Shown piece by piece: positions 26,601-41,394 of a DNA stretch of 64,000 nucleotides; the stretch's first letter is position 1, and each line of letters opens with the position of its first letter. This DNA is from Streptomyces platensis (GTDB lineage: Bacteria > Actinomycetota > Actinomycetes > Streptomycetales > Streptomycetaceae). The DNA is taken from positions 4,836,001 to 4,900,000 of the forward strand of contig NZ_CP023691.1 in NCBI RefSeq assembly GCF_008704855.1, read 5' to 3'. A program made the position numbers and the translations under genes. The notes beneath the pieces are model-generated. The model ran no database searches. It saw only the letters and a program-made list of their open reading frames with translations, and had not been told where the DNA came from.

Positions 26601-26918
26601 CCTGTCCCCCGAGGCGCCGACCTCCTGCGCGGTGCCGGACTCCTCGACGTCGTCGCGGGTGAGCAGAGGGGCGGCGTCCAGTCCTTGCTGTTCTCCAACG
26701 TCGTCGTCCTGCTGCGCTTTTGCGGCCCTGTCCGCGGCACGCGGATACAGCACGCCGGTCAGGTAGCGGTCGATCGGCGCGTCCTGGGTGAGTACCTCGT
26801 CCCGATCGTCCGGCATAGCGTCCTCGGCGGGGCCGAGGAGCTCACGGCGGAGTCCCACGAGGAGTTCCTCGTCCCTGACCCGGTAATGCTCGGAGTGTCG
26901 GCCTGCCACCTGCGTCAT
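23661..26918 (-). CDS. drmA: DrmA, DISARM SF2 helicase
   Basis: A 1085-aa helicase. The N terminus (LVGLRRELLGPAED, then RYLTGVLYPR) is the typical start of DrmA. An N-terminal beta-rich domain of about 400 residues precedes the helicase core: Walker A FPTGGGKTEAY near residue 470, a zinc knuckle with CPWC and CPGADC near 585-615, motif II as QDELH near 675, STATIRR as motif III near 710, and motif VI QATSRVGR near 935. The DELH box and the inserted zinc module are characteristic of the DrmA/DUF1998-linked helicases. The ATG at 26918 overlaps the stop of the upstream UvrD-like gene (ATGA), and its own stop overlaps the drmB start, so all are coupled. Expected role: DNA binding and translocation in the defence complex. 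Confidence 0.92.
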   Translation of the reverse strand: MTQVAGRHSEHYRVRDEELLVGLRRELLGPAEDAMPDDRDEVLTQDAPIDRYLTGVLYPRAADRAAKAQQDDDVGEQQGLDAAPLLTRDDVEESGTAQEVGASGDRRPSSMGLTFAVRPDISSSIVVSAHAAVYEPTDVDGRRVPARRAEARTTADQRERWRRKELALPDRTIDVTEPDPKKAIELAPEASLHVNVRRLDPNTGTVTVTVTLINSQKVGEWDLQDAFSLFQCGLTVRAADGSTAFVERPAPAAGHDPEIATSRLLHRHAPTFAVGHGCAAEWDWTPQPIGMTEAETPAVPEVRSQFVPTVEVLLTDSNPEIDSSTLSMLGLAEQSDAEVLAALEGLATGYEHWIDSKSVEADALTGGPHEKPARDQVTACREALDRICEGIELLRTKPDLMHAFRLANRAMAEQRARSKWVKDGRVGAPDLAAGRWRPFQIAFVLLCLAGIDDRDHHDRQISDLLWFPTGGGKTEAYLGLIALTSFLRRIRKGADGGGVTVLMRYTLRLLTLQQFERATILLCAMERMRRRTPELGHEEFSVGMWVGRSATPNTLAVAGLKLDELRKNLDKRLATENPVQLHACPWCGTRLDARNYEVDEDARRMHVRCPGADCDFADGLPVHLIDEAVYDARPTLVIATVDKFASMPWRPATSALFNRDDAPEGGTPPPELIVQDELHLISGPLGTLTGLYETAVDALADQPKVIASTATIRRAADQGRHLFAREVRQFPPAGLDARDSWFAVETPREEKASRRYVGLLAPGTSQSTLLIRTYATLLHRAKQAKTEDEVRDAYWSLVGYFNSLRLLSAAELQVHDDVVAYLEMLAEREGVEVRSVANYSELTSRIDASEIPARLKGIEKRRPDDDTVDVLLATNMIAVGVDVDRLGLMAVMGQPQTTAEYIQATSRVGRAHPGLVAVMLNSSRARDRSHYESFQHFHSALYREVESTSVTPFSARARDRGLHAVIVALARIMIPAARPNEGAGQVESYEHVLRGRIKSILLRRVEAVTREETGAVSLAFDEFVEWWCAEADIHNGLLFEPQRGSRTPSLLKAYDDASQDAEAWSTLWSLRDVDAETALFMEGTR

Positions 26919-28816
26919 GCGCGCTGCTCCTCGTAGTCGTCGGCTCTCCGGTACCGGCCGATGCCGGTGATCCGCGGGGCGATCCACACGCCTCGCTCAC
27001 CGAGACCGGCGTTGGCGCCGGCGGCGGTGCTGCCCGTCACGGTCTCCAGGGTGTCGATCCGCAGGCCATGGATCTCGTCGGGCCACCAAGGGTCCCAGGT
27101 GCGGTTCACCTTCTGCACCTGGAACAACTCCTCACGAAACCTTCGCGACGCCTCGCCGATCTCCCGCCCTTCGTGCACCAGGGCGTACGGCGGGCTCTCG
27201 GTCTCGCCCATCGGCAGATCGTGGCGCCTGCGCAGCAGCACCTCCTGGCCGGGACGGACCTGTTCCAGGAGATAGGCCTGGGTGGCTGCGGCGTCCGTCT
27301 CCTGGCCGGGCGGGTCGTCCCGGTCCACGTCGCCCGGCTCGGCGACGATCCCGTACCTGTCGTACGACCGCCACGATCCGAGGTAGCGACGCCCGTTGCG
27401 TTGACTCCCCGCCCTTCTGAAGAGCGGCAGTTCGGGAGGGGACACGTGGTACAGGTCCTGGCGGGCACGTGTCATCGCCACGTAGAGCGCGCGGGCTTCT
27501 GCGGGCAGGTCCAGCTCGTCCTGGTACCGCTTGTGGAGTTCGGCGAGGCTCGGTGGTGTCAGGACGATCACCCGGTCGAACTCCAGACCCTTGGCCCGGT
27601 GCACCGTCGAGACGACGATGCGGGCCATCTCCGGGTCGGCCGCCTCGTCGGGGAATCCGCCCTGGGCGACCAGCCGGCGCAACCGGTCCAGATCGAGTAC
27701 ACCGCGTCCCGCTCCGCGCGCGGCCCGACGCAGCACCGTCCACAGGGCGGCGTCGGGTTCGTACGGGAGAGGGATTTCCGTGAGGAGCGCACGAAACCGT
27801 TCCTCGGTGAGGACGTTCGCCTCCGTGCGGCGCAGCAACTCGGCCACCCAGTACGGCACCGGGCGCTCCTCCAACGGGCGCCGCAGCCGGTGATCGATAC
27901 CGTGTGCGTGCAGCAGGCCGGAGACCACGAGGGCCTGCTGGTTGTCACGGGTGAGGACGGCGCAAGTGTCGGAGAGGTCCCGCAGGCTGGTCAGGGTGAG
28001 CTCGTCGTCCAGGCCGCCTATGCCGTTCGCCGGGTCCAGGAGGAGGTCGCGCAGTTCGTCGTAGAGCGTTCCCGCCTCGTCCGGATCGCTCAGTTGCTGG
28101 AGACGGGGGCCGAGCGCCAGTGCGACTCGGGCCTCGGCGGTCGTGGCCCGGAAGTTCCGGGTGAGGTGCAGCTCCACCAAGTCGTCGGGGTAGGAGCAGC
28201 GCAGCCAGTCGAAGAACCGGCCGGTCTCGTCGGTGCGTTCGCTCACGTCCTCGATCTGGAAGCCGTACACGGACTGGGCCGCGTCGCCGACGACGGTGAA
28301 ACCGCAACTGTCCTGGTACCGGTCGAGAAGCGTCTCCACCAACTCGCGTCGCCCGCCCAGCAGGTCCTGCACCTCGTCGATCAGGACATGGGCGGGCGGG
28401 ACCGCGTCGCCGATCTCCAGCGCGCCCTTCTCGATCGCGCGGGTCGCGGCGGCGATCCGTTCGTCGAAGCCGACCGCTCCCCACTCGCCGTCCGGATGCG
28501 CCTGGTGGAGCACCTCGTAGGCCCACGCGTCGAAGGTACGGGCGCGTACTCGGTGGGCTCGTTCCCCGTGCCGGGAGATCCGTTCGCGCAGCTCCCGGGC
28601 GGCGGCCCGGGAGAAGGTCAGCACCAGGATCTCGGCGGCCTCCAGCGCCTGCTCGGGGTCCTCGTGACCGCACAGCGCGTCGAGCCGGCGTACCAAGGTG
28701 TGGGTCTTTCCGGCACCAGCGCCCGCGCTGACCAGGACACGAGCGTCCCAGGGCTGCTCGACCACGGCCAGTTGCTCTTCGGTGAGCGGGGGGCTGTCCT
28801 GGTAGACGTCGGTCAC
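26915..28816 (-). CDS. UvrD/Rep-like SF1 helicase
   Basis: A 633-aa ATP-dependent DNA helicase of superfamily 1. It has the Q-motif segment LTEEQLAVVE, Walker A SAGAGAGKTHTL at about residues 30-41, motif Ia LTFSRAAARELRERI, motif II IDEVQD at 146-151, motif III GDAAQSVYGF, motif V HRAKGLEFDRVIVL and motif VI YVAMTRARQDLY. No nuclease domain follows; the C-terminal 140 residues are a unique region with many Arg/Glu. It sits between the GHKL-SF2 giant and drmA, joined to each by four-base ATGA overlaps. Canonical DISARM has no such gene; here it takes a position in the operon next to drmA. It could unwind or degrade foreign DNA with the other two helicases. Confidence 0.9.
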   Translation of the reverse strand: MTDVYQDSPPLTEEQLAVVEQPWDARVLVSAGAGAGKTHTLVRRLDALCGHEDPEQALEAAEILVLTFSRAAARELRERISRHGERAHRVRARTFDAWAYEVLHQAHPDGEWGAVGFDERIAAATRAIEKGALEIGDAVPPAHVLIDEVQDLLGGRRELVETLLDRYQDSCGFTVVGDAAQSVYGFQIEDVSERTDETGRFFDWLRCSYPDDLVELHLTRNFRATTAEARVALALGPRLQQLSDPDEAGTLYDELRDLLLDPANGIGGLDDELTLTSLRDLSDTCAVLTRDNQQALVVSGLLHAHGIDHRLRRPLEERPVPYWVAELLRRTEANVLTEERFRALLTEIPLPYEPDAALWTVLRRAARGAGRGVLDLDRLRRLVAQGGFPDEAADPEMARIVVSTVHRAKGLEFDRVIVLTPPSLAELHKRYQDELDLPAEARALYVAMTRARQDLYHVSPPELPLFRRAGSQRNGRRYLGSWRSYDRYGIVAEPGDVDRDDPPGQETDAAATQAYLLEQVRPGQEVLLRRRHDLPMGETESPPYALVHEGREIGEASRRFREELFQVQKVNRTWDPWWPDEIHGLRIDTLETVTGSTAAGANAGLGERGVWIAPRITGIGRYRRADDYEEQRA

Positions 28817-31800
28817 TTCCGGCTCCAGAGGTGCTCGAACTGGGTGAAGGCGAGGTGCGTGTCGAAGTTGGCGATGTTGTCGCTGACGTTGAGGATCAGA
28901 CAGCTGTCCTTGCCGCCGTTCCGCCGTCCGCGCAGTCCGCGACCGATCATCTGCTGGTACACGTTGGTGCTGTAGACCGGCCTGGCCACGACCACGGCAC
29001 GAGTGGCCGGAGCGTCGAATCCCTGGGTGAGGACACCGTAGTTGGTGAGGACCCGGATGCGTTCGCGTCGGAAGTTCTCGATGCGATTGCGACGGTCCTG
29101 CGTGCTGGTCGTCGAGTCCACGGCGGCGGAGGGGACACCCCGGTCGTTGAGCATGGCGGCCAGGTATTTGGCGTGATCCACGGAGGTGGCGAAGAGCAAC
29201 GTCGGCCAGTCGTCCGGAAGTTCGGCCACTGAGTCGACGATGCGTCGACTGCGAGCGTGATCGTCGGCGAGCCGCTGTTCGGCGGAGCGGGAGAGCATGG
29301 CCATGCGATCGGCGTGTGTCTTCTCGTCCCGTGTGAGTTCGATGCGACCGCCCTCAAGGGTGCGGTGCTCGACCTGGGCGAGCATCCCCCAGCCCTGGAG
29401 GTCGCGATACGGGTCGCCCGACGGGAAGACTCCTTCGTCGAGTCGCCGATTGCCGAAGCGGCTGACCAGGCGGCGGGTCTCCTCCTCGTTGGTGTTCCGA
29501 AACGGGGTGGCGGTCAGGCCGAGCAGATGCCGTCCGGTCTCGTATTGGGTGAGTCCCAACTGGCCGAGGATCTCGGTGTATCGCTTGGAGATGGCGGTGT
29601 GAGCCTCGTCCACGATCACCAATGCTGCCTGGCGCAGCCAGGTGTACTGGTCGGTGCCCAGGCAGCGTTCCAGCTTGGCGTCGGTGGCGACCACCAGGTG
29701 AGGGTGGTCGACGATGTTCCCGACCTCGTTGGTGCTCCACAGCCTGCTGATGGTGAGCGGGCGTTCGGCGCCGACCTTGCTCCACACGAACTTCCAGCTC
29801 TGAACGGCCTGTTCGCACAATTCCTCGGTCTGCGCGATCCACAGCAGTGGACCCTTGAGGTCGCCGACTCGCTTCACCCAGCGGATCACGGCCTCGGCGG
29901 TGACCCGGGTCTTGCCGGCGCCGGTCGGCAGCGACAGCATGCCGCGCTGCGGCGCCAGTCGGTCGAGCATGGTGGAGATGTTCCGGACCAAGTCCTCCTG
30001 GTACTCGTGGAGACTCGGGAAGTCCCGAGGGCCCTCGACGGTCTCGAACGGCGGCGGGGACGGAGTCCTCGAACCGGCGAACGCGACCGGCAGCCTCAGC
30101 TCCGAGACGAACGCGATGGCCGCAGACGAACCTCCGTAGGCGACCGGGGCGTTGGGGAAGCGCGCCTGGATGTCCCGGGCATGCTGCTGGAGTACACCGT
30201 CACCGTGCGCGTTGAACGCCATCTGCGCGATACGACGCCCGGACGGCTCCCCCCCGTCGGTCGATTGCAGTTCGGCCTCCATCAGTCCCTCGGGGAGGCC
30301 GGTCCGGAGCGCGTCGGCACCGACCAGCAGTTCGATCTTGGCCACCACGTCCTCGGCCTCGCGAACTGCCTTCTGTGCCGCCTTCAGCTCGCTGTCCCGG
30401 GCCATACGGTCCTGGTGCTCCAGCACCGCACGGCAACCGGCAGCGCCGAGGCCCAGGCCGAGTTCGCGGTCGATCAGGCGCAGCATCGGCTCGGGGTCCA
30501 GAGGAAGTCGGACCTTGACGGTGCTGTCCTGGCGCACGGCGTCCAAGGGGGAGGCGTGCGTGCCGTTGGGCGTACGGGTGACCTCTTCCAGTTCGCTGCA
30601 CCGTTGCACCATGCTGTTCCGGTTCCCGCTGTTCAGACGCTGCCGCAGGGCAGGGAACAGCTCGACCAGCGGCACGGGGTCGCCCTCCGGTACTTCACGC
30701 GTCTCCAGGCTGATCACGTCGGCGTAGCGGAGCATGCCCCACTTCTCGATCATCAGCTCGGCGTCGTCGGCGGTCGGTACGAGCAGCGCCGGGAGCTGCT
30801 CGGCGCGCAGCGCCTGGTACTGAGCGGCTCCCACGGCGACGGTGATCTCACCGTCGGGCCGGGTTCCCCAGGCGTCGCCGATCCTGCAACGGGTCAGGGA
30901 GTCCTCGGGGAAGTCCGCACCGAACCGGGTCAGCATCACGTAGGTCGCGCCCACGAAGGAGTCGTCCTCGCTGCGGGTCACCTCGTCGAGGAGCGTGTCC
31001 CATTGGTCGGCGGGAACATCGTCGACGGTGGTCGGGAGTCGCAGCCTGCGGGCCTTCTCGGGAGAGATGTCGGCGACCGGCAGCACATCTCGGTAGCCGG
31101 CGAGCTGAGGGCCGACGGCCTCCTTGAGTGGCTTGATCCCCTGGGAGGTGGCGATCGTGCCGAACTTCCTCAGGATCCACCGGATCGGCGAGGGCACGGC
31201 CTGTCGGGTGTTGGTCTGTGCGCCGATCTGGCGCGTCCAGTTGTCCACCACGGCGTCGTCGGGCAGCACTTTCAGGAAGGCGGCGCGGGATTCCTCGGAG
31301 AGGGCGCGGAAGAGGTGGAGCGGGCCGCCGATAGCGGCGCCCTCGACCTTCATCCGGTTCAGTGCGGGGCGCGGGGCGCGACTGTCCAGGCCGCGCAGGT
31401 AGGCGGCGTGGAGGGCTTCGCGGTACTCCACGAACCACCCTTCGTCCTCCTGGGGGCGGACCCCACCGGACGGCCGTTCCCGCAGGCCGACCTGCGAGAA
31501 GAAGGGGGTGTCGTCGGAGTGGAACGCCATGTCGACAGCGATGCTCGGGTCGCGCTTCGCATCGGCCACGACACCCGGCAGCATGCAGTCCTCGACCGGC
31601 CGGAACCGACCGTCGGCGGTCCGCACCCGGAGCGTCGAGCGCGGAGTGGGCACCCTCTCCAGGACTTTGTGAGCCAGCCGACGCACCCCCGCCTGACGGA
31701 ACAGCTCCCAGAACCGCTCCCAGTCCGAGTCGCTGTAGTGGCCGAAGCCCTGATCGAGGATGCTGACGAACCGGCCCTCGACATCGGCCTCTCGGATGCC

Positions 31801-33576
31801 CAGGACGTTGAGCGCGTGAGCCAGCGATGGGTCCTGGGCGAGCTCGTCGACCACGTACACCAGGGCCTCGCGTAGGCCGCCCTGGTCGGCACGGCGGAAC
31901 ACCTTGCCGTGCACGGGTGCGACGAGACCGTGCTCCTCGGTGAGCACGATGTGGGCCTTGCGGGCCTCCTCGGCATAGGGAGAGCGGTTCTCGATCATTT
32001 CCGCGAGGATGCGAACGGCCGTCGCCGACGCCTCGGGGGTGCCGCTCTCGACCAGAGCCTCCAGCCATTCCCGGACATCAGTCCGCTCATGCCCGGCCGC
32101 GCTGATGATGTGCTCGACCTTTCCGGAGCGCAGGGCGTCCGCCTCGGCACTCGGATGAAGCCAGTTCGAGGGGCGTCCGGGGCACTCATGCCACATCCGC
32201 AGCCAACTGGACAGTTTTTTCAGGTCCCTGTCGAGGCGCGGGTGGATCCTCAGCGCCGTCGGGATGCGCAGGACGCCGTCCTGGTCGGGCAGCGACGGAC
32301 GGTCCGCGGTGCGGGCCCAGATCTCCCGGGTCAGGAACTCGTCGGCCCAGCTGATCGCCTCCTTGACTCGGCCGGGCAGCAGGGGGAGATAGGCGGCAGG
32401 GTCCTCCTCGGGTGCAAGGGCTGGGAGGGAGTCGACGACCAGCTTCGCCGACACCCGGATCATCTCTTGGTTGAAGGGAGAGGAGTCGAGGAGATTCTGA
32501 CGGTCCTCGTTCGTCTTCCAGGCGCCGTTGAGGATGCCGCTCAGCGACATCTCGTACTTGGTCGGGAAGAAGGACCAGAACTTGCCGCGTCCGCGCGAGC
32601 GCGGGCTGACGTACAGACCGCTCTCCGGGTCCTTCTCCAGGGCGGGGACGCCCCAGGCGAGGTCGAGCGAGAGCCGGCCATGCAGTTCTCCGGCGTCCGC
32701 GCGGGCGCTCGGACCGGGTTCGTGGGTGGTGGTGAACACGCGCCACCGTTCGGTGGCGACGGCTTTCCCGGTCCGCTCCTCGACCACGGTGTGCAGGTCG
32801 CCGGTCTGCTGGGCCGTCAGTGTCCGACGGGCCATGGGCCGTGGCCGGCGGTCCTCCAGCACGACCTTCGCGACGTGCGGCGAGAAGAGCTGGAAGCCGA
32901 CCGGGAATTCCTCTCGGGGCTCACCGTGGTTCTTGGCACGTCCGCCGTGCATGTCCCTGCCCAGCCGGTCATCCGCCTTCGGGAGCAGGGGCAGACGAAC
33001 GACGGTGGTGGCCCAGTTCAGCAGCTCGTTCAGGACGTGATCGGAAGCGCGCTCGGCCTGCACGTCCAGAGGTCGGGCCATCCGCAGCACGGGGGCGTCG
33101 AACTCAGGGCCGTAGCGCGCCGTCACGCCGGGCACGGCCCTGATCTGCTCGTACGACCAGGCGCGGGCGAATCCGAAACTTCCGGTGCTGCTGAAGAATT
33201 CCGGTTCGTCGGTCACCACGAGAACCGATTTGACGCCCACCCCGAAACGCCCGATCTGGCCGCCACGCTTCTTCGACATGCTCATTCGGAGAATTGTCTC
33301 CGCGCCTTCCGGGGTCACCGGATTACCCTCGTTCGCGCAGTACAAGTGGGTTTCCGTGAGGACGACATGAACTCGCCCACCCGACTCGTCGGCCATTTCA
33401 TCTGCCGCGTTCTGAACGAGCTCGAAAAGCTGACGATCGCCATATCCGCCCTGGGTGATACGGCGTTCGCCATTGGCGTGCTCGGCTACGAGACCGGGGT
33501 CCACGGCGTAAGTCTGCAGGACACGCGAGGACTGTTCGAGAACGGTTTGAACAACCGAAGAGGACGATGACGGCAC
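28813..33576 (-). CDS. GHKL ATPase (sacsin/Hsp90-like) fused to SF2 helicase
   Basis: A giant of about 1587 aa. The N terminus is a GHKL ATP-binding module: N box ELVQNAADEM near residue 55, a G-rich box RFGVGVKSVL near 130, and the segment MSMSKKRGGQIG between them, resembling the sacsin/Hsp90-like ATPase heads seen in defence proteins. About 900 residues without recognised motifs follow. The C-terminal 400 residues are a complete SF2 helicase: Walker A LPTGAGKT near 1220, DEAH near 1315, GLTATPF as motif III, TQGFDAPATR as motif V and QMIGRGLRG as motif VI. The GTG at 33576 is preferred as start because AGGAG lies ten bases upstream; a TTG at 33600 is also in frame. First gene of the operon with the UvrD-like gene, drmA and drmB. 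Confidence 0.85.
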   Translation of the reverse strand: MPSSSSSVVQTVLEQSSRVLQTYAVDPGLVAEHANGERRITQGGYGDRQLFELVQNAADEMADESGGRVHVVLTETHLYCANEGNPVTPEGAETILRMSMSKKRGGQIGRFGVGVKSVLVVTDEPEFFSSTGSFGFARAWSYEQIRAVPGVTARYGPEFDAPVLRMARPLDVQAERASDHVLNELLNWATTVVRLPLLPKADDRLGRDMHGGRAKNHGEPREEFPVGFQLFSPHVAKVVLEDRRPRPMARRTLTAQQTGDLHTVVEERTGKAVATERWRVFTTTHEPGPSARADAGELHGRLSLDLAWGVPALEKDPESGLYVSPRSRGRGKFWSFFPTKYEMSLSGILNGAWKTNEDRQNLLDSSPFNQEMIRVSAKLVVDSLPALAPEEDPAAYLPLLPGRVKEAISWADEFLTREIWARTADRPSLPDQDGVLRIPTALRIHPRLDRDLKKLSSWLRMWHECPGRPSNWLHPSAEADALRSGKVEHIISAAGHERTDVREWLEALVESGTPEASATAVRILAEMIENRSPYAEEARKAHIVLTEEHGLVAPVHGKVFRRADQGGLREALVYVVDELAQDPSLAHALNVLGIREADVEGRFVSILDQGFGHYSDSDWERFWELFRQAGVRRLAHKVLERVPTPRSTLRVRTADGRFRPVEDCMLPGVVADAKRDPSIAVDMAFHSDDTPFFSQVGLRERPSGGVRPQEDEGWFVEYREALHAAYLRGLDSRAPRPALNRMKVEGAAIGGPLHLFRALSEESRAAFLKVLPDDAVVDNWTRQIGAQTNTRQAVPSPIRWILRKFGTIATSQGIKPLKEAVGPQLAGYRDVLPVADISPEKARRLRLPTTVDDVPADQWDTLLDEVTRSEDDSFVGATYVMLTRFGADFPEDSLTRCRIGDAWGTRPDGEITVAVGAAQYQALRAEQLPALLVPTADDAELMIEKWGMLRYADVISLETREVPEGDPVPLVELFPALRQRLNSGNRNSMVQRCSELEEVTRTPNGTHASPLDAVRQDSTVKVRLPLDPEPMLRLIDRELGLGLGAAGCRAVLEHQDRMARDSELKAAQKAVREAEDVVAKIELLVGADALRTGLPEGLMEAELQSTDGGEPSGRRIAQMAFNAHGDGVLQQHARDIQARFPNAPVAYGGSSAAIAFVSELRLPVAFAGSRTPSPPPFETVEGPRDFPSLHEYQEDLVRNISTMLDRLAPQRGMLSLPTGAGKTRVTAEAVIRWVKRVGDLKGPLLWIAQTEELCEQAVQSWKFVWSKVGAERPLTISRLWSTNEVGNIVDHPHLVVATDAKLERCLGTDQYTWLRQAALVIVDEAHTAISKRYTEILGQLGLTQYETGRHLLGLTATPFRNTNEEETRRLVSRFGNRRLDEGVFPSGDPYRDLQGWGMLAQVEHRTLEGGRIELTRDEKTHADRMAMLSRSAEQRLADDHARSRRIVDSVAELPDDWPTLLFATSVDHAKYLAAMLNDRGVPSAAVDSTTSTQDRRNRIENFRRERIRVLTNYGVLTQGFDAPATRAVVVARPVYSTNVYQQMIGRGLRGRRNGGKDSCLILNVSDNIANFDTHLAFTQFEHLWSRK

Positions 33577-33767
33577 TGCTTCTGCGCTCCTGGGTGTCAA
33601 GATCCGGACGAAAGAGAGAACGGCGGGCCGGCCACCGGCGCGTCGGCCGGCCCGTGTTCGTCGTGGCGCTGGGCGTTATTTTCCACAGTGCCTTCGTGAA
33701 GCGGAGGGTTCACGGTGAAGTCGCCGGTTGTTGCGAGACCGAGACTTCGGGCCCGTGACGTGCTGAA

Positions 33768-34419: not shown

Positions 34420-34435
34420 TGATCGAGCTCGATCA
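34420..34435. promoter_or_regulatory. 16-bp perfect palindrome, candidate operator
   Basis: TGATCGAGCTCGATCA at 34420-34435 is a perfect palindrome located 8 bases before a -35-like TTGACG. Its size and place fit a dimeric XRE-family repressor site controlling the operon that encodes the XRE-GHKL protein. Confidence 0.55.
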
Positions 34436-34443
34436 ACTGTTGG

Positions 34444-34473
34444 TTGACGCTTCGGTACTTGTCAAATTAGCCT
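34444..34473 (+). promoter_or_regulatory. candidate promoter of XRE-GHKL operon
   Basis: TTGACG (34444-34449), 18-base spacer, TAGCCT (34468-34473). Transcription would start around 34480, leaving almost no leader before the in-frame ATG codons at 34487 and 34499. No ribosome site is visible, so the message may be nearly leaderless. TTGAC and GTCAA (34461-34465) also form an inverted repeat over the promoter. Confidence 0.45.
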
Positions 34474-34474
34474 C

Positions 34475-36676
34475 GTGGTCCACACCATGCGATTCGGCAT
34501 GGGACTCCGAGGAAAGAGCAGGCGGCGCGTGGAGACAGGTGAGGAGTTCGGGCCTTGGTTGGCCCGACAGCTCAAGCTCGCAGGGAAGACGCAGGCTGAA
34601 CTGGCCGACGAGCTCAAGCTGACTCGGGCCGCTGTGTCCGCATGGATCACCGGCAGGTCGACGCCTCGCCCGACCGTCATGGCGGACATCGCCAAGGCGC
34701 TCGGCACGGATGTGGGCACGGTGCACACCCGAACCACCGACACCCAAGCCGGCCTCCCGGTCACCTGGTACCACCGCCCCGGCTACCCCGACGGCGGCCG
34801 CGACCTGGGCAATGCCGCAGCCTTCGCCTTCGACGCCGACGTGCAGGTCCTCGCGCGAGAGACTTGCCAGAACAGCCTGGACGAGCGGCTGACGGAGAAC
34901 GGCCGCCCGGTCAAGGTCCGCTACACCCTGCACGAGCTCACCGGCGAAGCCCTGGACGCTTTTCGTGAGGCGATCCTCTGGAACGATCTCTTTCCGCACT
35001 ACTTCGCCGTCTCGGAGGCCGCCGGTAACCAGAAGGTCGGTCGGGTCGTGGACGCCGGGGTGCGCGACATGTACGAGAAGGGCCGCTTGGTCCTGCTGCG
35101 CGTCGACGACTACAACGCCTCCGGGCTCATCGGCGACGACTATGCGGACGGCAAGTTCGCCGCCGTGGTCAGACGCCAACTGGAGAGCCTCAAGTCCGGT
35201 CCCGGCGCCGGTGGTTCGTACGGCTTGGGCAAGGCGACGCTGTGGGCCACCAGCGCCCTCGGGCTCGTGCTCATCAACTCCACTCTCTCCGTGCCTCACG
35301 AGGGACGTACCGAGCGACGGGTCATCGGGCGTCTCGAACTGCCGTGGCGTGAGGTCGACGGCGAGTCGTACGCAGGCCCCGCCTGGTTCGGGCGCCCCGA
35401 TCCTGACTCGCCCGGGGCCATGGTCGCCCGTTCCTGGTGGGCGGACGAGGAGACCGTGGAGAGCCTGCATCTGACCCGGGAGAACGACGAACCCGGTACG
35501 TCCTTCCTCATCGTCGGTGCGCACGATGTGGCCGGCCTCGCGGCGAACTCCTCCGATCCCGACGACGGGTTCGTCGGCGACGAGGAGGGCGATGAGGACA
35601 CGCGTGACATCAACACGATGCACGCCCGACTGGTCGAAGCACTGGGGCGTGACTTCTGGGCCGCGATGACCGGCGGGGGCAGCAAGCTCCCCCTCCTGGA
35701 GGTCTCTGTCCGTGCCCTGCGGAACGGCAAGGAGGTCGTGGCGGAGCAGCAAGTGGACCCTTCTGTCGAACAGCCCTCCCGGACCCGTGCCCTGAGGGCG
35801 CACTACGAGGGCACCACGGTGGATCGCCTCACCGAGGCCGGGCAGGTGGCGGCGCGGAGCGTCCCGCTGAAGCTGCCGCTGTCCGGAGGCGCCCATGGGA
35901 CGTTCGGTACGCACCAAGCGGTTCTGCTCGTCACCGAGGCGGAGAGGGACAGGGACGGGGCGAAGAACCGGATGCACTCGCTGCGCGGCAATCGCATGAC
36001 CGTCAAGAGGACCGTGGTCCCGAGGCTGCCGAACAGCACCAACCCTTTCCAGGCCGTTCTGTTGGTGGGGGAGGCGGCCGGAGAAACGGCCCCCTTCGCG
36101 AAGGAGGCCGAGGATTTCCTGCGTGCGGCGGAACCTCCCGAGCACGACCGTTGGGGGCAGACGGAAGAGCTGACACTGCGTTGGTCACCGTCCGCGTACC
36201 GGCGGATCAACGCGCTGACCGCCGAGGCCAACAATGCGGTGAGAGAACTTGTCGCACGGCCGAAGCGCAGCAGCGGCGAAGGCGGTGAGGCCCTGCGCAA
36301 GGCGTTGACAGTGCGAACGAGGCCCAAGGCCAAGACACCCACCGGCCCGGTGGTTCCGGTCCTGGACGGGCTCGACGCGACGGTCGGCGACGGCGGGGAG
36401 TGGCAGATCACCGGCGAAGTGAGCATCGCGCGTGGCGACGAGATCGTCCCGATGGTGCCGGTGGCTCAGCTGGACGTGCGCTCGGGGGGCCGCCCCAGGC
36501 TGGACTGGGCGGAGCTCATGGGCGTCGAGGGCTGCGAAGCGGAGGACGGAATACTGCGCTTCACACCCGGCGCGCGGCGTGCGAAGTTCCGAGGAACCAC
36601 CGACGTCACCAGCCACCCGGTCAGAACCACTCTCACCCGTCTCGTTGTCGAACTCCGTGCCGGCAAGGGGGAGTGA
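34475..36676 (+). CDS. XRE HTH fused to MutL/MORC-type GHKL ATPase
   Basis: Up to 733 aa. Residues about 24-78 are a classic XRE/Cro helix-turn-helix (KTQAELADELKLTRAAVSAWITGRSTP). A GHKL ATPase follows: N box ARETCQNSLDE at about 127-137 with the catalytic Glu and Mg-binding Asn, a D-box-like RVDDYNASGL at about 209-218, and a glycine-rich lid GAGGSYGLGKATLW at about 244-257. The pattern is that of the MutL/MORC-related ATPases reported in predicted bacterial restriction-modification operons. A Lys/Arg-rich region and a beta-rich C terminus of about 100 residues follow. Start choices are GTG 34475, ATG 34487 or ATG 34499; none has a ribosome site. The first gene of a three-gene operon, it probably both autoregulates and acts as an ATP-driven DNA clamp or switch. 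Confidence 0.85.
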   Translation: MVHTMRFGMGLRGKSRRRVETGEEFGPWLARQLKLAGKTQAELADELKLTRAAVSAWITGRSTPRPTVMADIAKALGTDVGTVHTRTTDTQAGLPVTWYHRPGYPDGGRDLGNAAAFAFDADVQVLARETCQNSLDERLTENGRPVKVRYTLHELTGEALDAFREAILWNDLFPHYFAVSEAAGNQKVGRVVDAGVRDMYEKGRLVLLRVDDYNASGLIGDDYADGKFAAVVRRQLESLKSGPGAGGSYGLGKATLWATSALGLVLINSTLSVPHEGRTERRVIGRLELPWREVDGESYAGPAWFGRPDPDSPGAMVARSWWADEETVESLHLTRENDEPGTSFLIVGAHDVAGLAANSSDPDDGFVGDEEGDEDTRDINTMHARLVEALGRDFWAAMTGGGSKLPLLEVSVRALRNGKEVVAEQQVDPSVEQPSRTRALRAHYEGTTVDRLTEAGQVAARSVPLKLPLSGGAHGTFGTHQAVLLVTEAERDRDGAKNRMHSLRGNRMTVKRTVVPRLPNSTNPFQAVLLVGEAAGETAPFAKEAEDFLRAAEPPEHDRWGQTEELTLRWSPSAYRRINALTAEANNAVRELVARPKRSSGEGGEALRKALTVRTRPKAKTPTGPVVPVLDGLDATVGDGGEWQITGEVSIARGDEIVPMVPVAQLDVRSGGRPRLDWAELMGVEGCEAEDGILRFTPGARRAKFRGTTDVTSHPVRTTLTRLVVELRAGKGE

Positions 36677-36679: not shown

Positions 36680-37675
36680 GTGAAGTTCTACCCGTACAAG
36701 CGGCTCAACCGGCCGGTCACGCTCAGGGTGACCTCGGTCTCCCTCAAGCTCTCCGACGGTACCCGCGACCAGTTGGAGATCGCCGCGTACTCGGCCCAAC
36801 AGCAGGCTGTCGCGCTCGGTATCGCGGGCCACACAGACTGGGTGAGCGCCACGATCGGTCTTTCGGCGACGCTGCCGCCCGGGGCGAACACCCTGGACGC
36901 GCCCTGGTCGGATCTGTGTGTCCTCGCCGTGCTGACGGACGGCGAGACCAATGTCCGTACCTCTGCGAATCTCACGCTCGACGCGGAGGACGGCCGGGAC
37001 TGGTCCGGCTCGCTGGAGCTGTTCCGTGACGATCACCTGGGGCGGGCCTCCCTCGCCGTGTACGCCGTCGGGACAGTGGACGGAGTGCGCGGACGGTCGA
37101 TCGCCGAGACCGACCGGAGCTGGATCATCGACACGGTTTCCGACGAGCCGGTCCGTGGGCTCCAACTCGACGTCCAGAAAGCGTCGTTCAAGAGAAGCTC
37201 CCGGGAGTGGCTCCAGGCCTACGCCGACGCGCCCTGGATCGCGGACATCTCGGCCAGAGTCCCCACCGTGTTCGTGAACACCGATGTCGAAGGTGTCATC
37301 GACCTGTTGGACAGCAATGGCTCGGGTGTGGACAGCAAGGTGCGTGACCTCCTGGTCGCCCAGATGGCCACCGACGTCTGGACCGCGGTGTTTCACGGTG
37401 CCATCGGCGATCTGGAGGTGGAACCCGGTGGCGGGCCGGTCTTCCCCACCGACTGGCAGGGCGAGGTGCTGCGGGAGATGCTCCCGGACGTGATTCCCGG
37501 CGTCCATGTCGAGGAGGCCCTACGGCAGGTCCATCGCCGGCGCACCGGCGACTCGGGCTGGGTGGAGCTACAGACGCGTATCCATTACGCGGCGGTCCGC
37601 CGCGCCGATGCCACCAAGGCGCTTGCCTTTGTCATCCGCAGTCTGGAACAGATGAACCGCGAGAGTGAGACGTGA
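36680..37675 (+). CDS. uncharacterised defence-island protein
   Basis: A 331-aa protein starting at GTG 36680, three bases after the XRE-GHKL stop and behind a strong GGGGGAG. The N-terminal half is predicted beta-rich (alternating strands such as VTLRVTSVSLKL and SLAVYAVGTV). The C-terminal half is helical and includes conserved-looking Trp residues (SREWLQAYADAPWI) and a polar segment EEALRQVHRRRTGDSGW. I see no PD-(D/E)XK, HKD, HNH or nucleotide-binding motif. Its last bases (GTGA) overlap the start of the next gene, so it is made together with the XRE-GHKL ATPase and the 292-aa protein and may be their complex partner. I do not recognise the family. Confidence 0.8.
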   Translation: MKFYPYKRLNRPVTLRVTSVSLKLSDGTRDQLEIAAYSAQQQAVALGIAGHTDWVSATIGLSATLPPGANTLDAPWSDLCVLAVLTDGETNVRTSANLTLDAEDGRDWSGSLELFRDDHLGRASLAVYAVGTVDGVRGRSIAETDRSWIIDTVSDEPVRGLQLDVQKASFKRSSREWLQAYADAPWIADISARVPTVFVNTDVEGVIDLLDSNGSGVDSKVRDLLVAQMATDVWTAVFHGAIGDLEVEPGGGPVFPTDWQGEVLREMLPDVIPGVHVEEALRQVHRRRTGDSGWVELQTRIHYAAVRRADATKALAFVIRSLEQMNRESET

Positions 37676-38550
37676 TCACCCAACCGAACCACGTACCGGA
37701 GCGCCTGGGGCTGCTCGCCACCTCTGCCGTCGATCCGTTTCTCACCGAGGAACTACTCAAAGGCGAACAGGTTCACGGCGGCATCGATCTCGCCAAGGTC
37801 GTCGAGCCGCTCCCCGAGGACGACGCCAGGTGGTGGGTCGAGCCGATCCGGAGCCTGGTGGAAGACGCCATGTTCGAGTTCCGGGAGGACCGCACCCGAG
37901 CCGACGCATGGCTCGCGCCACGGCTCCATGCCACGCTGCGCCTGACGCGGCGAGAAGCGGCGGACAAGCGTCTGTGGAACCACCTCGCCCTGGCTGTGGC
38001 CCCGGACTATGTGGTCTGGCGGCACCTGTCGGAGCCGACGGCGAGCAGGCCGGAAAGGCGCATCGCTGCCGAGCGCTTCCGTGGCCCCGCGGACCGTCAG
38101 TGTTTCTCCCGCCTGTGGTGGGCGGCCGAACTCTTCAGGAACGGGTCGGACTACGAGCCGGTCGAGGTCGCCTGCGGAAATCAGGACCTCATCCACACCG
38201 TTCTCCGGAGCGAGTTGATCGATCACCGTCCCACCGCTCAGGCCTTGGTCCGTCTTCTGAAGAGCGGCCAGGTCTCCGGCGGGCGAGAGGTCAACGGCCT
38301 CAGCGTCGCGATCAACGCGGCGGGAGCGACCTTGATCTACGACATCCTCGCGCCGGACCAGCCCCGCGACCCCGCCCAACTGCGGGACTGGATCGCGGAA
38401 GCGGAATCAGCGCCACCGGTCGAGCGGTACGAACTCCCGAACGGGCCGGACGAGGACCCTGTCCCGGAGGAATCCGTGGCTGCGCTCACCAGCTACTTCG
38501 CGGAGCTGTTCGAGACTGCGCCGGTCAGAGGCAGGAAGAGCGGGGATTGA
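37672..38550 (+). CDS. DUF6339-like protein
   Basis: A 292-aa protein. It opens with a helical segment (VDPFLTEELLKG) and then has Trp-rich motifs: DDARWWVEPIRSLVEDAMFEFR, DAWLAPRLHATLRL and LWNHLALAVAPDYVVWRHL, followed by CFSRLWWAAELFRNG. The RLWW and WxxR pattern resembles proteins labelled DUF6339, which occur next to methyltransferases and helicases in defence loci. I make this match from memory of the motif and hold it loosely. No catalytic signature is evident. The start GTG 37672 overlaps the stop of the preceding gene. Its stop lies 17 bases from that of the convergent methyltransferase. Confidence 0.75.
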   Translation: MITQPNHVPERLGLLATSAVDPFLTEELLKGEQVHGGIDLAKVVEPLPEDDARWWVEPIRSLVEDAMFEFREDRTRADAWLAPRLHATLRLTRREAADKRLWNHLALAVAPDYVVWRHLSEPTASRPERRIAAERFRGPADRQCFSRLWWAAELFRNGSDYEPVEVACGNQDLIHTVLRSELIDHRPTAQALVRLLKSGQVSGGREVNGLSVAINAAGATLIYDILAPDQPRDPAQLRDWIAEAESAPPVERYELPNGPDEDPVPEESVAALTSYFAELFETAPVRGRKSGD

Positions 38551-38567: not shown

Positions 38568-39947
38568 CTACTTCGCCGACGCCTTCTTGCTCTTTCGAGG
38601 GCGCACGGAGGAAGGGGGCGGCACCTGGTCCTTGGGACGCGGGCACCTGTCGGTGCAGGCGGCGGCGGCCCCGCAGCCGTTGCTTCGCAGCTTGGTCCGC
38701 TGTTCCTCCGTGGCCGGCTGCCATGGCTTCCTCAACGCCTCCGGGTTCGGTTTGGGGAGTCCGAGAGCGGCACTCAGCAGGTGCGCACCGAACAGGGGCG
38801 GTACGGCGTTGCCCACCTGCTGGGCCTGTGCCGTACCGGACCACGGATAGTCCGGGGGGAAGCTCTGCAGCATCCCCGCCTCGTTCATGCTGAACCGTGC
38901 GCCCTCGTAGACGACGCTCTCGTCGAGGTGCTGGAACACTACGAAGCGGCTGATCTTGCCGGTGACGGTGAAGGCGGGCTGCTGGTCGCTTCGTACGCCT
39001 CGTCGCCCCGGGTGGCTGGAGCTGCCGTAGTTCGAGCGAACCAGGAACGGAGTGCGGCGCCCCGGATGTGAGCCCACCTGGTTCGCGAGGGCATCACCCA
39101 TCGATCTCCAGGGCTGCAGGTCCTCGTCGCCTGTTGCCTGGTGCTCATCGGTCTCCGGCTCGGTGCCGTCGTAGAGGGTCGCCTGATGGACCTGGCCCGC
39201 GGCCTGGTCGTGTTCGTTCTTCCCGTTCCTTCGGTTCCATTGCTTGGCTTCGTAGGAATAGTGAGTCGGCGAGGGAAGCGAGGGCTCACCAAGCCCTTCA
39301 CGCCGAGCGATCAGCACCGCGCGGGATCGCGTCTGCGGAACCCCGTAGGTCTCGGTGTCGAGGACATCGACGACGACCTTGTACTTGGTCCCGTCGGGTA
39401 GCCCTGTCTCCTCCAGCACCTTGGCATAGTGCTTCCAGAGCGCCTCGACCTCGCGGACCTGCTCCAGGACGATGACGTCGTACGGGCGGTGCTCCCGGTT
39501 CGGGCTCCGGGTCGCCTGAATCGCGTATCGGAGGGGTTCGAGGACCAATGCGGTACGTGGATCGGTGAGCGTCTTCAGGTCCTCGTCGATCTCCTGGTCG
39601 GAGTCGCCCGCCATCAGTCGCTCGATGTACCCCTTGACCCTGTCCAGAGCTTGGCGTCCGGCGCCGTGCCCGGCCACCGAGTACGTCTGGCACGGAGGGC
39701 CACCTGCGAGCACGCTGATCTCCGGCGGCAGGGACTCGAAGGAATCCCTGCGTACCGCGCTAACGTCGGCGTGAAGGGTGTCCAGCCCGGCCGCGTATCG
39801 GGTGAGGCACGCGCTTCTGTCCCACTCGATACCGAGACTCGGGATGTCGAGTGCGTGCCCAGCGACATCCAGCCCTCCGGGTCCTGCGAAGAGATCCAGG
39901 ACAAAGGGCTTGTCGAGGATGGACTGGTGGTGCACCGAGCTGGTCAT
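38568..39947 (-). CDS. DNA cytosine-C5 methyltransferase (probable active subunit)
   Basis: A 459-aa enzyme transferring a methyl group from SAM to C5 of cytosine. Motif I is LDLFAGPGGLD at about residues 17-27. Motif IV is AGGPPCQTYS with the nucleophile Cys86. Motif VI is VLEQVREV (Glu kept, the usual Asn replaced by Gln). Motif VIII region is YGVPQTRSRAVLI and motif X is QVGNAVPPLFGAHL. About 180 residues between VIII and X make up the target-recognition region. The C terminus is unusual: a Cys cluster (CGAAAACTDRC) and a Lys-rich tail. The ATG at 39947 is chosen because the sequence before it overlaps the preceding gene. It follows the Cys-less methyltransferase by 11 bases and probably protects host DNA; it corresponds to DrmMII of class 2 DISARM. 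Confidence 0.92.
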   Translation of the reverse strand: MTSSVHHQSILDKPFVLDLFAGPGGLDVAGHALDIPSLGIEWDRSACLTRYAAGLDTLHADVSAVRRDSFESLPPEISVLAGGPPCQTYSVAGHGAGRQALDRVKGYIERLMAGDSDQEIDEDLKTLTDPRTALVLEPLRYAIQATRSPNREHRPYDVIVLEQVREVEALWKHYAKVLEETGLPDGTKYKVVVDVLDTETYGVPQTRSRAVLIARREGLGEPSLPSPTHYSYEAKQWNRRNGKNEHDQAAGQVHQATLYDGTEPETDEHQATGDEDLQPWRSMGDALANQVGSHPGRRTPFLVRSNYGSSSHPGRRGVRSDQQPAFTVTGKISRFVVFQHLDESVVYEGARFSMNEAGMLQSFPPDYPWSGTAQAQQVGNAVPPLFGAHLLSAALGLPKPNPEALRKPWQPATEEQRTKLRSNGCGAAAACTDRCPRPKDQVPPPSSVRPRKSKKASAK

Positions 39948-39958
39948 GTGGCGGAAGT

Positions 39959-40954
39959 TTAGCCGGCCGCGGGGACTCCCGGATCCCCGTTCAACGCTTC
40001 GGCGACGGCCCGTCCCAGCGCCTCGCCGACCGGCGGCGGGGTCGCATGCCCGATCTGGCGGTACCGGGCGGTCTTGAGTCCGGAGATCCCCCATACTGCG
40101 GGGAAGCCCTGGAGGAGAGCGGTCTGGTCCACCGTGATCCTTACCAGTCCGTCGTCCCCGAGTGACGGATCCCACCTGAAGTCGGGGCCGGGCGGCTCGT
40201 TCCCGAACGACTTCGTGTAGACCCCCATGCGTCGCCACTTGGCCTTTGTGCCGCTCGGTCCGAAGTCAGGGCCTCCGTGTGTCTTGGATCCGCCCACCAA
40301 GGTCGGCGCCACACTCTTTGCCTGGGCCGCCCAACGGTCGGCGTCCGGCCAGCCGCAGGAACGCATCGACGGTGCCAGCGCCTCTCCGACCGACACGTGT
40401 TCGTGGACGGTGGAGCGGGGCGGCCGGAAGGCACTCGCCCACTGCTGCTTGACGGCCACGAGGATGCCTTGCATGCGGTCCTGGGGCACTCCGAAGTCGG
40501 AGGCGTTCAGGATGAACCAGGCCAGTTCGTAGCCGAGGTGCTCCAGCTCTTTGCGGAGGAAGTCCCGTACCGGCGCCAGGGAATCCTGGTCGACCAGGGT
40601 GGGCACGTTCTCGATGATCAGTGCACGTGGCTGGACGGCGTGAACCAGATAGGCAGTCGCCTCGATGAGGCGTAACTCGGTGTCCGACGACTGGCGCGTC
40701 ACCGTCGCGCTCGACCTCACCCTGGGGAGACCGGCTGTCAGCAGATCGACGTCGTACACCTCGGGGTGGTCCACGGGGTCGAAGTCGAGAAGGTCCGCTT
40801 TCAGCACATTCCAATGCGGCCGGTTGGCTTTGAGCGTGTCGCAAGCAGACGGCTCGTTGTCCAGGAGGAGCCGAGGCGTGAAGCCCGCTCGTTCCAGCCC
40901 CAGAGCGAGTCCACCGGCCCCCGAGCACACGTCGACAAAGCTCAGTCCGCTCAA
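39959..40954 (-). CDS. cytosine-C5 methyltransferase homologue lacking the catalytic Cys
   Basis: A 331-aa protein with a recognisable C5-methyltransferase fold: motif I FVDVCSGAGGLALG, motif VI ALIIENVPTL with the conserved Glu115-Asn116, motif VIII ASDFGVPQDRMQGILV and motif X QIGHATPPPVGEALG. In motif IV, where GGPPCQ is expected, the sequence is TAGLPRVRSSA, so Arg78 replaces the nucleophile Cys. I checked the codons: CCC AGG. SAM binding may be kept but methyl transfer by the usual route is not possible. It starts with TTG 40954 overlapping the Vsr stop (TTGA) and is followed 11 bases later by the intact methyltransferase. It is probably a structural or specificity partner of that enzyme rather than a decayed gene, since the rest of the frame is clean. 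Confidence 0.85.
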   Translation of the reverse strand: MSGLSFVDVCSGAGGLALGLERAGFTPRLLLDNEPSACDTLKANRPHWNVLKADLLDFDPVDHPEVYDVDLLTAGLPRVRSSATVTRQSSDTELRLIEATAYLVHAVQPRALIIENVPTLVDQDSLAPVRDFLRKELEHLGYELAWFILNASDFGVPQDRMQGILVAVKQQWASAFRPPRSTVHEHVSVGEALAPSMRSCGWPDADRWAAQAKSVAPTLVGGSKTHGGPDFGPSGTKAKWRRMGVYTKSFGNEPPGPDFRWDPSLGDDGLVRITVDQTALLQGFPAVWGISGLKTARYRQIGHATPPPVGEALGRAVAEALNGDPGVPAAG

Positions 40955-41394
40955 CGTTTCCTCCCCCGTCCCCGCTGGGCCTTCCGCCGCTCCACCGCCG
41001 CCGCGATACGGAGAGTCACGTCATCCGGTGCTTCATGCTCCCAGAAGCGCAGTACCTCCCAGCCGGCCGCTACGAGGTGCTCCGTGGTCTCCGTATCACG
41101 CGCCATGTTGCGGTCCAACTTCTGCCGCCACGACTCTGCGTTCGACTTCGGCTGCGTCGCGTGTTCGGGGCAGCCGTGCCAGAAGCATCCGTCGATCAGG
41201 ACAGCTACTTTGACCGAGGTGAACGCCACGTCGATCCGGCGCCGCGCCATGCCTGGCACCGGGTACTCCACGCGGTAGCGCAGGCCGGCCGCGTGCAGGA
41301 GGCGTCGGACCAGCAGTTCGGCGGCCGTGTCCTTGCTCGCCTGCCTGCTCATGCGTGCGGAGACGGAGGGCGATGACGGCTTCATTGTGCTCAA
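40951..41394 (-). CDS. vsr: Vsr-like very short patch repair endonuclease
   Basis: A protein of 144-147 aa with the full Vsr pattern: MSRQASKDTAAELLVRRLLHAAG at the N terminus (catalytic Glu), RRIDVAF with the metal-binding Asp, VLIDGCFWHGCPEHATQPKSN with the His and zinc-binding Cys/His, and WEVLRFWEHE at the C terminus. Classical Vsr nicks T:G mismatches left by deamination of 5-methylcytosine, protecting genomes that carry a C5 methyltransferase. In defence operons it is also a candidate effector nuclease. The start is TTG 41394 or ATG 41385; neither has a good ribosome site. First gene of the Vsr-methyltransferase-methyltransferase unit; its stop overlaps the next start. Confidence 0.92.
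   Translation of the reverse strand: MSTMKPSSPSVSARMSRQASKDTAAELLVRRLLHAAGLRYRVEYPVPGMARRRIDVAFTSVKVAVLIDGCFWHGCPEHATQPKSNAESWRQKLDRNMARDTETTEHLVAAGWEVLRFWEHEAPDDVTLRIAAAVERRKAQRGRGRKR

What the first reader, a model, noticed from the sequence alone, without database searches (positions are those of the whole stretch)
34475..36676. XRE DNA-binding domain fused to a MutL/MORC-type ATPase
One protein carries a textbook XRE HTH followed by GHKL motifs (QNSLDE, DDYNASGL, GGSYGLGK). An ATP-driven clamp that can also bind a specific operator could link sensing of foreign DNA to derepression of the island. It heads its own operon, directly beside palindromes in the shared control region.
Basis: partly seen in the sequence, partly recalled or inferred. 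Interest (0 to 1): 0.7.

Follow-up and report, generated by a model that had tools for sequence, protein, structure and literature searches.

The report
Self-regulating MORC-like ATPase beside DISARM
A soil bacterium's anti-virus gene island carries a MORC-like ATP-using protein joined to a DNA-binding switch, and the switch has an apparent conserved docking site in front of its own gene, which suggests the protein controls its own supply.

Summary
The protein is one polypeptide: a Cro/C1-type (XRE) helix-turn-helix followed by a GHKL-S5 ATPase of MORC/MutL fold. Its start is GTG 34529, 54 nt inside the called ORF; the HTH survives the correction. The HTH region is aligned in 68 of 68 relatives from named genomes. 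The ATPase carries the ExxxH signature published for paraMORC2 and heads a fixed trio (ATPase, unknown protein, DUF6339) beside C5-methyltransferases, Vsr and a DISARM DrmA/DrmB operon.

New here: a conserved operator, GTCAA-N7-TTGAC plus a third half-site, in front of this gene. It is present (up to one mismatch) in 65 of 73 non-redundant XRE-type upstream regions and in 0 of 8 of a sub-group in which the protein is fused in frame behind a sigma-70 factor. In that sub-group the HTH has also decayed. XRE-less versions exist in haloarchaea and a cyanobacterium, so the DNA-binding part is an add-on.

Best reading: an autoregulated paraMORC2 ATPase of a DISARM-linked restriction module. Control of the whole island, and any ATP or foreign-DNA input, is unproven; no conserved site was found near the divergent operon.

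The parts
34529..36676 (+). XRE-GHKL-S5 protein (715 aa), corrected start GTG 34529
   Evidence: start-codon column and upstream stops; Pfam HTH_3; alignment A1; fold
34562..34714 (+). Cro/C1 (XRE) helix-turn-helix, residues 12-62
   Evidence: Pfam HTH_3 E=5.4e-11; TRAAVSAW recognition-helix segment in 21 of 21 XRE-type rows
34784..36274 (+). GHKL + S5/transducer ATPase module (residues 86-582), with N-box, G1, G2 and the ExxxH signature (E535..H539)
36344..36661 (+). C-terminal beta domain (residues 606-711), function unknown
   Evidence: model secondary structure
34432..34448 (.). operator palindrome ATCAA-CTGTTGG-TTGAC (consensus GTCAA-N7-TTGAC)
34461..34465 (+). third half-site GTCAA, 12 nt after the palindrome
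34444..34473 (+). possible promoter: TTGACG (34444-34449), 18 nt, TAGCCT (34468-34473), inside the operator
   Evidence: read from sequence; not found by the consensus scan; inference
34509..34528 (+). ribosome-binding region; conserved block 34511-34528
36680..37675 (+). g2, 331 aa, no family; beta-rich N-terminal half, helical C-terminal part
   Evidence: present in 98 of 98 loci
37672..38550 (+). g3, DUF6339 / PDC-M33C
38568..40238 (-). M1, C5-cytosine methyltransferase with PPCQ motif (true start probably internal, MTSSVHHQ)
39959..40954 (-). M2, C5-methyltransferase-like protein without the catalytic cysteine motif (LPRV in place of PPCQ)
40951..41394 (-). Vsr-type endonuclease
28813..33600 (-). 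sacsin-like GHKL + superfamily 2 helicase (1595 aa)
26915..28816 (-). UvrD-like helicase
23661..26987 (-). DrmA, DISARM helicase (NF038325, 1011 bits, cutoff 950)
21799..23844 (-). DrmB (NF038324, 474.7 bits, cutoff 240)

Best explanation
It is a paraMORC2-type GHKL-S5 ATPase, the first gene of a three-gene module (ATPase, g2, DUF6339) that works with C5-methyltransferases, Vsr and a DISARM-type DrmA/DrmB system. In actinobacteria this ATPase has gained an N-terminal Cro/C1 HTH. The HTH, probably as a dimer plus a third subunit, binds GTCAA-N7-TTGAC and the neighbouring GTCAA over its own promoter and represses its own operon, so the amount of ATPase limits itself, as in C-protein-controlled or HTH-fused restriction systems. 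The ATPase part probably acts as an ATP-gated clamp within the DNA-targeting machinery. Withdrawal of the protein from the operator (engaged on DNA, in a complex, or in another nucleotide state) would raise expression of the trio. Shown: domain order, start, operator conservation and position, co-loss of operator and HTH, gene neighbourhood. Inferred: binding, repression (rather than activation), clamp activity, anti-phage role.
For: HTH region aligned in 68 of 68 named loci and in 83 full-length matches among 392 genomes of the genus. Operator with at most 1 mismatch plus third half-site in 65 of 73 non-redundant XRE-type upstream regions, mean 0 in 40 dinucleotide shuffles; of gaps 3-11, GTYAA-N-TTGAC occurs at gap 7 only. 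Strict sites fall at this promoter in 33 of 33 cases across 68 long loci. Footprint: only the operator, the third half-site and the RBS are conserved in the 928-nt gap across 41 relatives. Co-loss: the sigma-fused sub-group has 0 of 8 operators, and HTH identity of 54% against 79% at equal ATPase identity. MORC/MutL fold. ExxxH signature. Trio in 98 of 98 loci, DrmA within 10 kb in 65 of 68.
Against: No binding, expression or phage data exist. The motif was found in the same sequences it is counted in. In the sigma-fused loci the counted stretch is coding sequence, so absence there is partly structural. 8 of 73 XRE-type regions fail at 1 mismatch plus third half-site, and 5 still fail at 2 (L058, L060, L062, L066, L067; L066 and L067 show a similar pair with a 6-nt gap, read by eye). 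Similar palindromes occur at 16 other places in the genome. The promoter hexamers are weak. Another regulator could use the site. Repression against activation cannot be told from sequence. The PADLOC ATPase match is partial.
Confidence: 0.68

Rival explanations
1. ATP-gated switch for the whole island: the MORC-like clamp senses foreign or damaged DNA, changes nucleotide state, and the fused HTH lets go of the operator so that the defence genes are expressed. In the sigma-fused branch the same ATPase would drive a dedicated sigma factor instead.
For: Conserved operator at the promoter; intact ATPase motifs; repeated linkage of the ATPase to transcription modules: XRE fusion, sigma-70-XRE fusion, and an annotated ribbon-helix-helix gene overlapping an XRE-less archaeal copy. 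Precedent: CapK, an HTH-STAS-GHKL kinase, controls immune operons after DNA damage (PMC13373217, passages).
Against: No strict operator site or conserved block near the DISARM-side operon. XRE-less ATPases occur in haloarchaea and a cyanobacterium, so the core function does not need the HTH. CapK is kinase-type and its HTH deletion had no effect.
Confidence: 0.25
2. The HTH is a targeting domain that places the ATPase clamp on particular DNA; the upstream sites are a minor consequence.
For: MORC and MutL relatives act on DNA (recalled); the module is DNA-directed by its neighbours.
Against: Strict sites are confined to the own promoter in 68 loci, which is the pattern of an operator, not of a targeting signal.
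Confidence: 0.1
3. The GTCAA-N7-TTGAC site belongs to an unlinked host regulator, and the XRE domain does something else.
For: A loose pattern (RTYAA-N7-TTGAC) gives 20 strand-hits at 17 places in the genome, 16 besides this one, against 5 hits for the reversed control pattern; they include a tandem pair on L106.
Against: Operator and recognition helix are lost together. The exact site persists in Umezawaea (L059) and two Amycolatopsis (L063, L069) at about 50% protein identity, though not in Rhodococcus (L060). The small neighbouring ORF cannot be the regulator: it has no match in 37 of 48 loci with a strict operator.
Confidence: 0.1

Closest known systems
paraMORC2 family of Iyer, Abhiman and Aravind 2008 (PMC2292703; parts 1-2 of 4 of the text plus passages read)
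   Same: GHKL + S5 with intact motifs; ExxxH late in the S5 domain; neighbours are superfamily 2 helicase, C5-methylases and Vsr; Gram-positive and cyanobacterial spread
   Different: Here: N-terminal XRE fusion with a conserved operator, a constant g2-DUF6339 pair, DISARM linkage, and a sigma-fused branch. Their Fig. 2 legend lists an HTH domain, but the figure is not held, so an earlier sighting of an HTH fusion cannot be excluded.
PADLOC candidate PDC-M33 (M33A, M33C)
   Same: Matches to the ATPase (partial) and to DUF6339
   Different: No paper in the library holds the name. The M33A profile positions 30-170 match residues 122-268, so little of the profile is left for the N-terminal HTH.
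DISARM (DrmA, DrmB, DrmC, DrmMI/II)
   Same: DrmA and DrmB above NCBI cutoffs, C5-methyltransferase nearby
   Different: No DrmC among the ORFs scanned; sacsin-type helicase and UvrD in the operon; the ATPase trio is not one of the DISARM parts listed in the passages read of PMC9142583
CapK/CapS (PMC13373217; abstract and passages read)
   Same: HTH and GHKL in one protein linked to control of immune operons
   Different: CapK is HTH-STAS-GHKL of the anti-sigma kinase type acting on CapS; here GHKL-S5 of MORC type, no STAS match in the ATPase, g2 or g3
C proteins and other HTH autoregulators of restriction systems (recalled; C.BclI is a structural hit)
   Same: Cro/C1 HTH and an operator at the own promoter
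   Different: C proteins are small and stand alone; here the HTH is fused to an ATPase

Membership tests
paraMORC2 | GHKL domain with conserved ATP-binding motifs plus S5 domain | tested here: met
   Invariant E111, N115, D118, D194, G228-K235 in 27 rows; MORC, MutL and Hsp90 matches span about residues 86-582
[quoted passage not shown]
   E535 and H539 invariant in 27 of 27; also in the 3 XRE-less relatives; definition
paraMORC2 | Neighbours: superfamily 2 helicase, DNA methylase, Vsr or RE-fold nuclease | tested here: met
   in relatives M1 67 of 68, Vsr 58 of 68
paraMORC2 | Sequence clustering with the 2008 paraMORC2 set, and lack of the MORC-specific S5 motif | not tested
   their alignment is a figure and is not held
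DISARM | DrmA helicase | tested here: met
   NF038325 1011 bits, cutoff 950
DISARM | DrmB (DUF1998) protein | tested here: met
   NF038324 474.7 bits, cutoff 240
DISARM | DNA methyltransferase | tested here: met
   M1, Pfam DNA_methylase E=6e-25; a DrmMII model matches (3.8e-18) but is not its best PADLOC match
DISARM | DrmC PLD nuclease | tested here: inconclusive
   no match in the ORFs scanned (for long proteins one search shows only the best 25 rows); not every ORF was scanned; often missing from annotated operons
DISARM | class-specific DrmD or DrmE | tested here: inconclusive
   none among the PADLOC rows shown (best 25 rows only for three proteins)
CapK | STAS domain between HTH and GHKL | tested here: not met
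   no STAS match at E<=0.1
CapK | CapS partner (STAS-wHTH) in the same operon | tested here: not met
   g2 and g3 have no STAS match
XRE (Cro/C1) regulator | HTH_3 domain | tested here: met
   42.8 bits, cutoff 23
XRE (Cro/C1) regulator | binds an operator at a target promoter | not testable with these tools
   footprint and co-loss only
PDC-M33 | M33A and M33C matches in one operon | tested here: met
   1.2e-20 (partial) and 1.8e-11; g2 has no PADLOC match

The most novel reading that the evidence does not exclude
A MORC-type ATPase clamp that is itself a transcription factor: nucleotide state or engagement with foreign DNA sets whether the fused Cro/C1 domain holds the operator. In a sister branch the same clamp is joined to a sigma-70 factor, giving a one-protein sensor and sigma switch for a DISARM-linked defence island.
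Probability: 0.22. Interest if true: 0.85.

Novelty: new variant of a known kind. Interest (0 to 1): 0.6.

Why it matters
How defence islands set their own dose is an open question, and the controllers described in the papers read here (C proteins, CapW, CapH, CapS) are separate proteins. Here the regulator is part of the ATPase itself, the operator is mapped to the base, and nature has provided a control group in which operator and HTH were lost together and a sigma factor was gained. That makes a direct test of ATP- or DNA-gated transcription by a MORC-type ATPase possible, and ties paraMORC2-type proteins to DISARM in bacteria and archaea.

Tried and rejected
Mis-called fusion: rejected. 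The start moves to 34529 but the HTH stays. Operator shared with the divergent operon: rejected as a conserved feature. ARMADA (PMC12458937; outline, abstract and passages read): it has a BrxHII/RapA-like helicase, a PglX-like methyltransferase and a YprA helicase, whereas this operon has DISARM DrmA/DrmB above cutoff, so not filed there. Response-regulator-like/paraMORC relatives with Vsr (PMC8011034; passages read): the passages do not mention an HTH, and they were not pursued. g2 as a nuclease: no support; its model (pLDDT 86) has no convincing PDB match (best E 6.7e-5 to an oligosaccharyltransferase chain at TM 0.20-0.25). Genome-wide regulon: a loose pattern gives 20 strand-hits at 17 places in the genome (reversed-pattern control: 5 hits). 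The L106 pair sits near an ORF that looks like a Clp-N-type regulator (by eye), and 7 places share one sequence, ATCAAAGCTTGGTTGAC, which looks like a repeated element, so no regulon is claimed. Island ends: no second copy of 14 or more nt from the tRNA-Thr region in the window. Wider search: A1 at E<=1e-15 gave 2 matches in a draw of 396 genomes of the phylum, both in the window's genus, one being the window's own genome, although the named scan found Umezawaea, Rhodococcus, Amycolatopsis and Lentzea. PDC-M33A gave 4 of 296. Literature: searches listed no paper that describes an XRE- or sigma-fused MORC-type ATPase with DISARM, judged by titles and abstract starts; two searches listed only 15 of 40 and 20 of 69 papers, and most subscription journals are not held.

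Full report
WHAT IS THERE. The window is part of an 8.5-Mb single-contig genome whose best relatives are Streptomyces. ORF 34475-36676 (+) carries a Cro/C1 HTH (Pfam HTH_3, 5.4e-11) and GHKL motifs. The real start is GTG 34529: a start codon stands at that column in 84 of 98 loci, the other 14 have one one to three codons upstream, and 34 of 98 have an in-frame stop within the 18 codons upstream of it. The protein is therefore 715 aa, with the HTH at 12-62. Among 392 genomes of the window's genus, 85 match; 83 are full length with the HTH, and 2 match only the HTH. The query was the full-length protein, so XRE-less relatives are under-sampled in these two searches.

WHAT KIND OF ATPASE. In 27 aligned sequences the N-box E, N and D, the G1 Asp and the GGSYGLGK loop are invariant. 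AlphaFold2 on that alignment gave mean pLDDT 74, with stretches under 50 that include 70-80, 83-100, 201-234, 282-304, 336-356 and 580-605. Foldseek puts topoisomerase VI-B first for the long domain (1.1e-9, but TM only 0.29-0.33) and ClgR, C.BclI, SinR and P22 c2 among the matches for the HTH (2e-3 to 1e-2). The second aligner gives MORC3 Z 15.8 (rmsd 4.3, 313 aligned), MORC4 15.4, SMCHD1 15.2, Hsp90 15.1 and B. subtilis MutL 14.6 over about residues 86-582; several are tied within one Z unit, so MORC is not singled out. Iyer et al. 2008 define paraMORC2 by an ExxxH motif late in the S5 domain, and place it with superfamily 2 helicases, methylases and Vsr nucleases. Here EPPEH (E535..H539) is invariant in 27 of 27 rows, and E..H is kept in three XRE-less relatives. 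I therefore file the ATPase as paraMORC2-type. Their alignment could not be compared because it is a figure.

NEIGHBOURHOOD. To the right: g2 (no family in Pfam, NCBIfam or PADLOC) and g3 (DUF6339; PDC-M33C), then, on the other strand, a C5-methyltransferase (M1), a second one (M2) and Vsr. To the left, divergent: a sacsin-type GHKL-helicase, UvrD, DrmA (1011 bits, cutoff 950) and DrmB (474.7, cutoff 240). The trio ATPase-g2-g3 is present in 98 of 98 loci. Among the 68 loci, DrmA lies within 10 kb in 65 (missing in L039, L058 and L067; L058 has only 4.6 kb upstream), the sacsin-helicase and UvrD in 57 each, M1 in 67, M2 and Vsr in 58 each. DrmB lies mostly beyond the 10-kb flank and was seen in 8. 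The 98 include near-duplicates of the same species, and L001 is the window itself.

OPERATOR. Upstream regions show GTCAA-N7-TTGAC followed 11-15 nt later by GTCAA. After thinning 98 regions to 81 by shared words, GTYAA-N7-TTGAC occurs in 42 of 81 at gap 7 and in 0 at gaps 3-6 and 8-11 (mononucleotide shuffles at gap 7: mean 0.01). Exact GTCAA-N7-TTGAC occurs in 32 of 73 XRE-type regions; with at most one mismatch plus the third half-site in 65 of 73 (40 dinucleotide shuffles: mean 0); with at most two in 68 of 73, missing in L058, L060, L062, L066 and L067. The window's copy is ATCAACTGTTGGTTGAC at 34432-34448 with GTCAA at 34461-34465; it is the only place in the 64 kb with at most one mismatch. 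In 68 loci of 16 kb or more, all 33 strict sites (GTYAA-N7-TTRAC) lie within 150 bp upstream of the match to this gene and none elsewhere. Aligning the whole 928-nt gap of 41 non-redundant relatives (of 54 that passed a 79% identity and length filter) leaves three conserved blocks: 34430-34449, 34458-34477 and 34511-34528. The first two are the operator and the third is the ribosome-binding region. Nothing comparable lies near the divergent operon, although a short site in a poorly aligned stretch could be missed. A TTGACG/TAGCCT pair with an 18-nt spacer overlaps the operator, but the promoter scan does not report it, so the promoter is an inference.

A NATURAL CONTROL. In 8 of the 68 loci (L043, L047-L051, L061, L068) the frame runs uninterrupted into an upstream sigma-70 factor; in L061 the ORF is 1210 aa. 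Regions 2 and 4 are above Pfam cutoffs in 8 of 8; region 3 is above cutoff in 4 (L047, L049, L051, L061) and below it in 4. Linkers of 69-74 aa stay in frame in the six loci where my anchor worked; it misplaced two, L047 and L068, which the alignment still shows. One fused polypeptide is thus likely, though an internal GTG start is possible. In these loci no operator is found (0 of 8; Fisher p 4e-7 against XRE-type, not corrected for ancestry). The recognition-helix segment TRAAVSAW is kept in 0 of 6 sigma-type rows against 21 of 21 XRE-type rows, and HTH identity is 54% (10 pairs, L050 left out) against 79% (37 pairs) at the same 80-90% ATPase identity. A Pfam HTH match at the XRE position still reaches its whole-protein cutoff in L050 and L048, is weaker in L043, L049 and L061, and is absent in L047, L051 and L068. 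Operator and HTH appear to have lost constraint together, which ties one to the other. Caveats: the stretch counted is coding in those loci, and the eight are related. The ATPase tree puts L050 with the XRE-type L036 (88/99, below the tree's star threshold) rather than with the other five sigma-type rows, so a second gain or an exchange is possible.

XRE-LESS RELATIVES. A plasmid search found the ATPase at 27-32% identity in four haloarchaeal and one Synechococcus record. I opened three (H1, H2, H5). All three carry ATPase, DUF6339 and C5-methyltransferase genes, with a g2-sized gene between the first two; g2 similarity is significant in L103 and L104 (6e-7, 3e-5) and not in L105 (0.43). The two archaeal ones lie within 10 kb of DrmB and DrmC. 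In Halobaculum a gene annotated as ribbon-helix-helix overlaps the ATPase start. H3 and H4 were not opened. So the trio occurs widely without the XRE part, and DNA-binding control parts seem to have been attached more than once.

MECHANISM. Most likely: an autoregulated paraMORC2 ATPase of a DISARM-linked restriction-type module. Shown: fusion, start, fold class, operator, its restriction to the own promoter in the loci read, co-loss, neighbours. Inferred: binding, repression, clamp action on DNA, defence role. Constitutive DrmAB expression has been proposed for DISARM (PMC9142583, passages read), which would leave the ATPase trio as the regulated half; that is conjecture. CapK/CapS (PMC13373217, abstract and passages) is a precedent for an HTH-GHKL protein controlling immune operons, but it is a kinase with a separate repressor, and deleting its HTH had no effect.

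NOVELTY. The ATPase family and its restriction context are known since 2008; DISARM is known. The operator, the XRE autoregulation and the sigma-70-XRE-GHKL branch were not found in the library listings. The HTH entry in the 2008 figure legend means that an HTH fusion as such may have been drawn before.

Noticed in passing
39959-40954 (-): M2 is a C5-methyltransferase-like protein in which the catalytic PPCQ motif is replaced by LPRV in 22 of 22 aligned sequences: a conserved pseudo-methyltransferase next to an active-looking one.
   Followed up: partly
L061:8495-12127 (+), and L043, L047-L051, L068: A sigma-70 factor (regions 2-4) fused in frame to the XRE-GHKL protein, with a NERD-type helicase ORF seen beside it in L061.
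   Followed up: partly
17709-18385: tRNA-Thr (CGT) followed by a short phage-integrase fragment (Pfam 1.1e-13), a possible edge of a mobile island; no direct repeat found.
   Followed up: partly
28813-33600 (-): The 1595-aa divergent protein is a second GHKL-like (sacsin-type) ATPase fused to a superfamily 2 helicase, so two different ATPases of this superfamily face each other across the control region.
   Followed up: no
33768-33980 (-): Small ORF of about 70 aa (MNEQDSESL...) between the two operons; a tblastn match to the longer ORF in 34 of 98 loci, no PADLOC match.
   Followed up: no
34420-34435: Perfect 16-nt palindrome TGATCGAGCTCGATCA partly overlapping the operator's left end; mostly outside the blocks conserved across 41 relatives.
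   Followed up: no
L103:7832-8917 (+): Haloarchaeal ribbon-helix-helix-annotated gene overlapping the start of an XRE-less copy of the ATPase.
   Followed up: no
L106 (G000:C1:527365-527409): Two perfect GTCAA-N7-TTGAC palindromes in tandem beside an unrelated regulator-like ORF.
   Followed up: no
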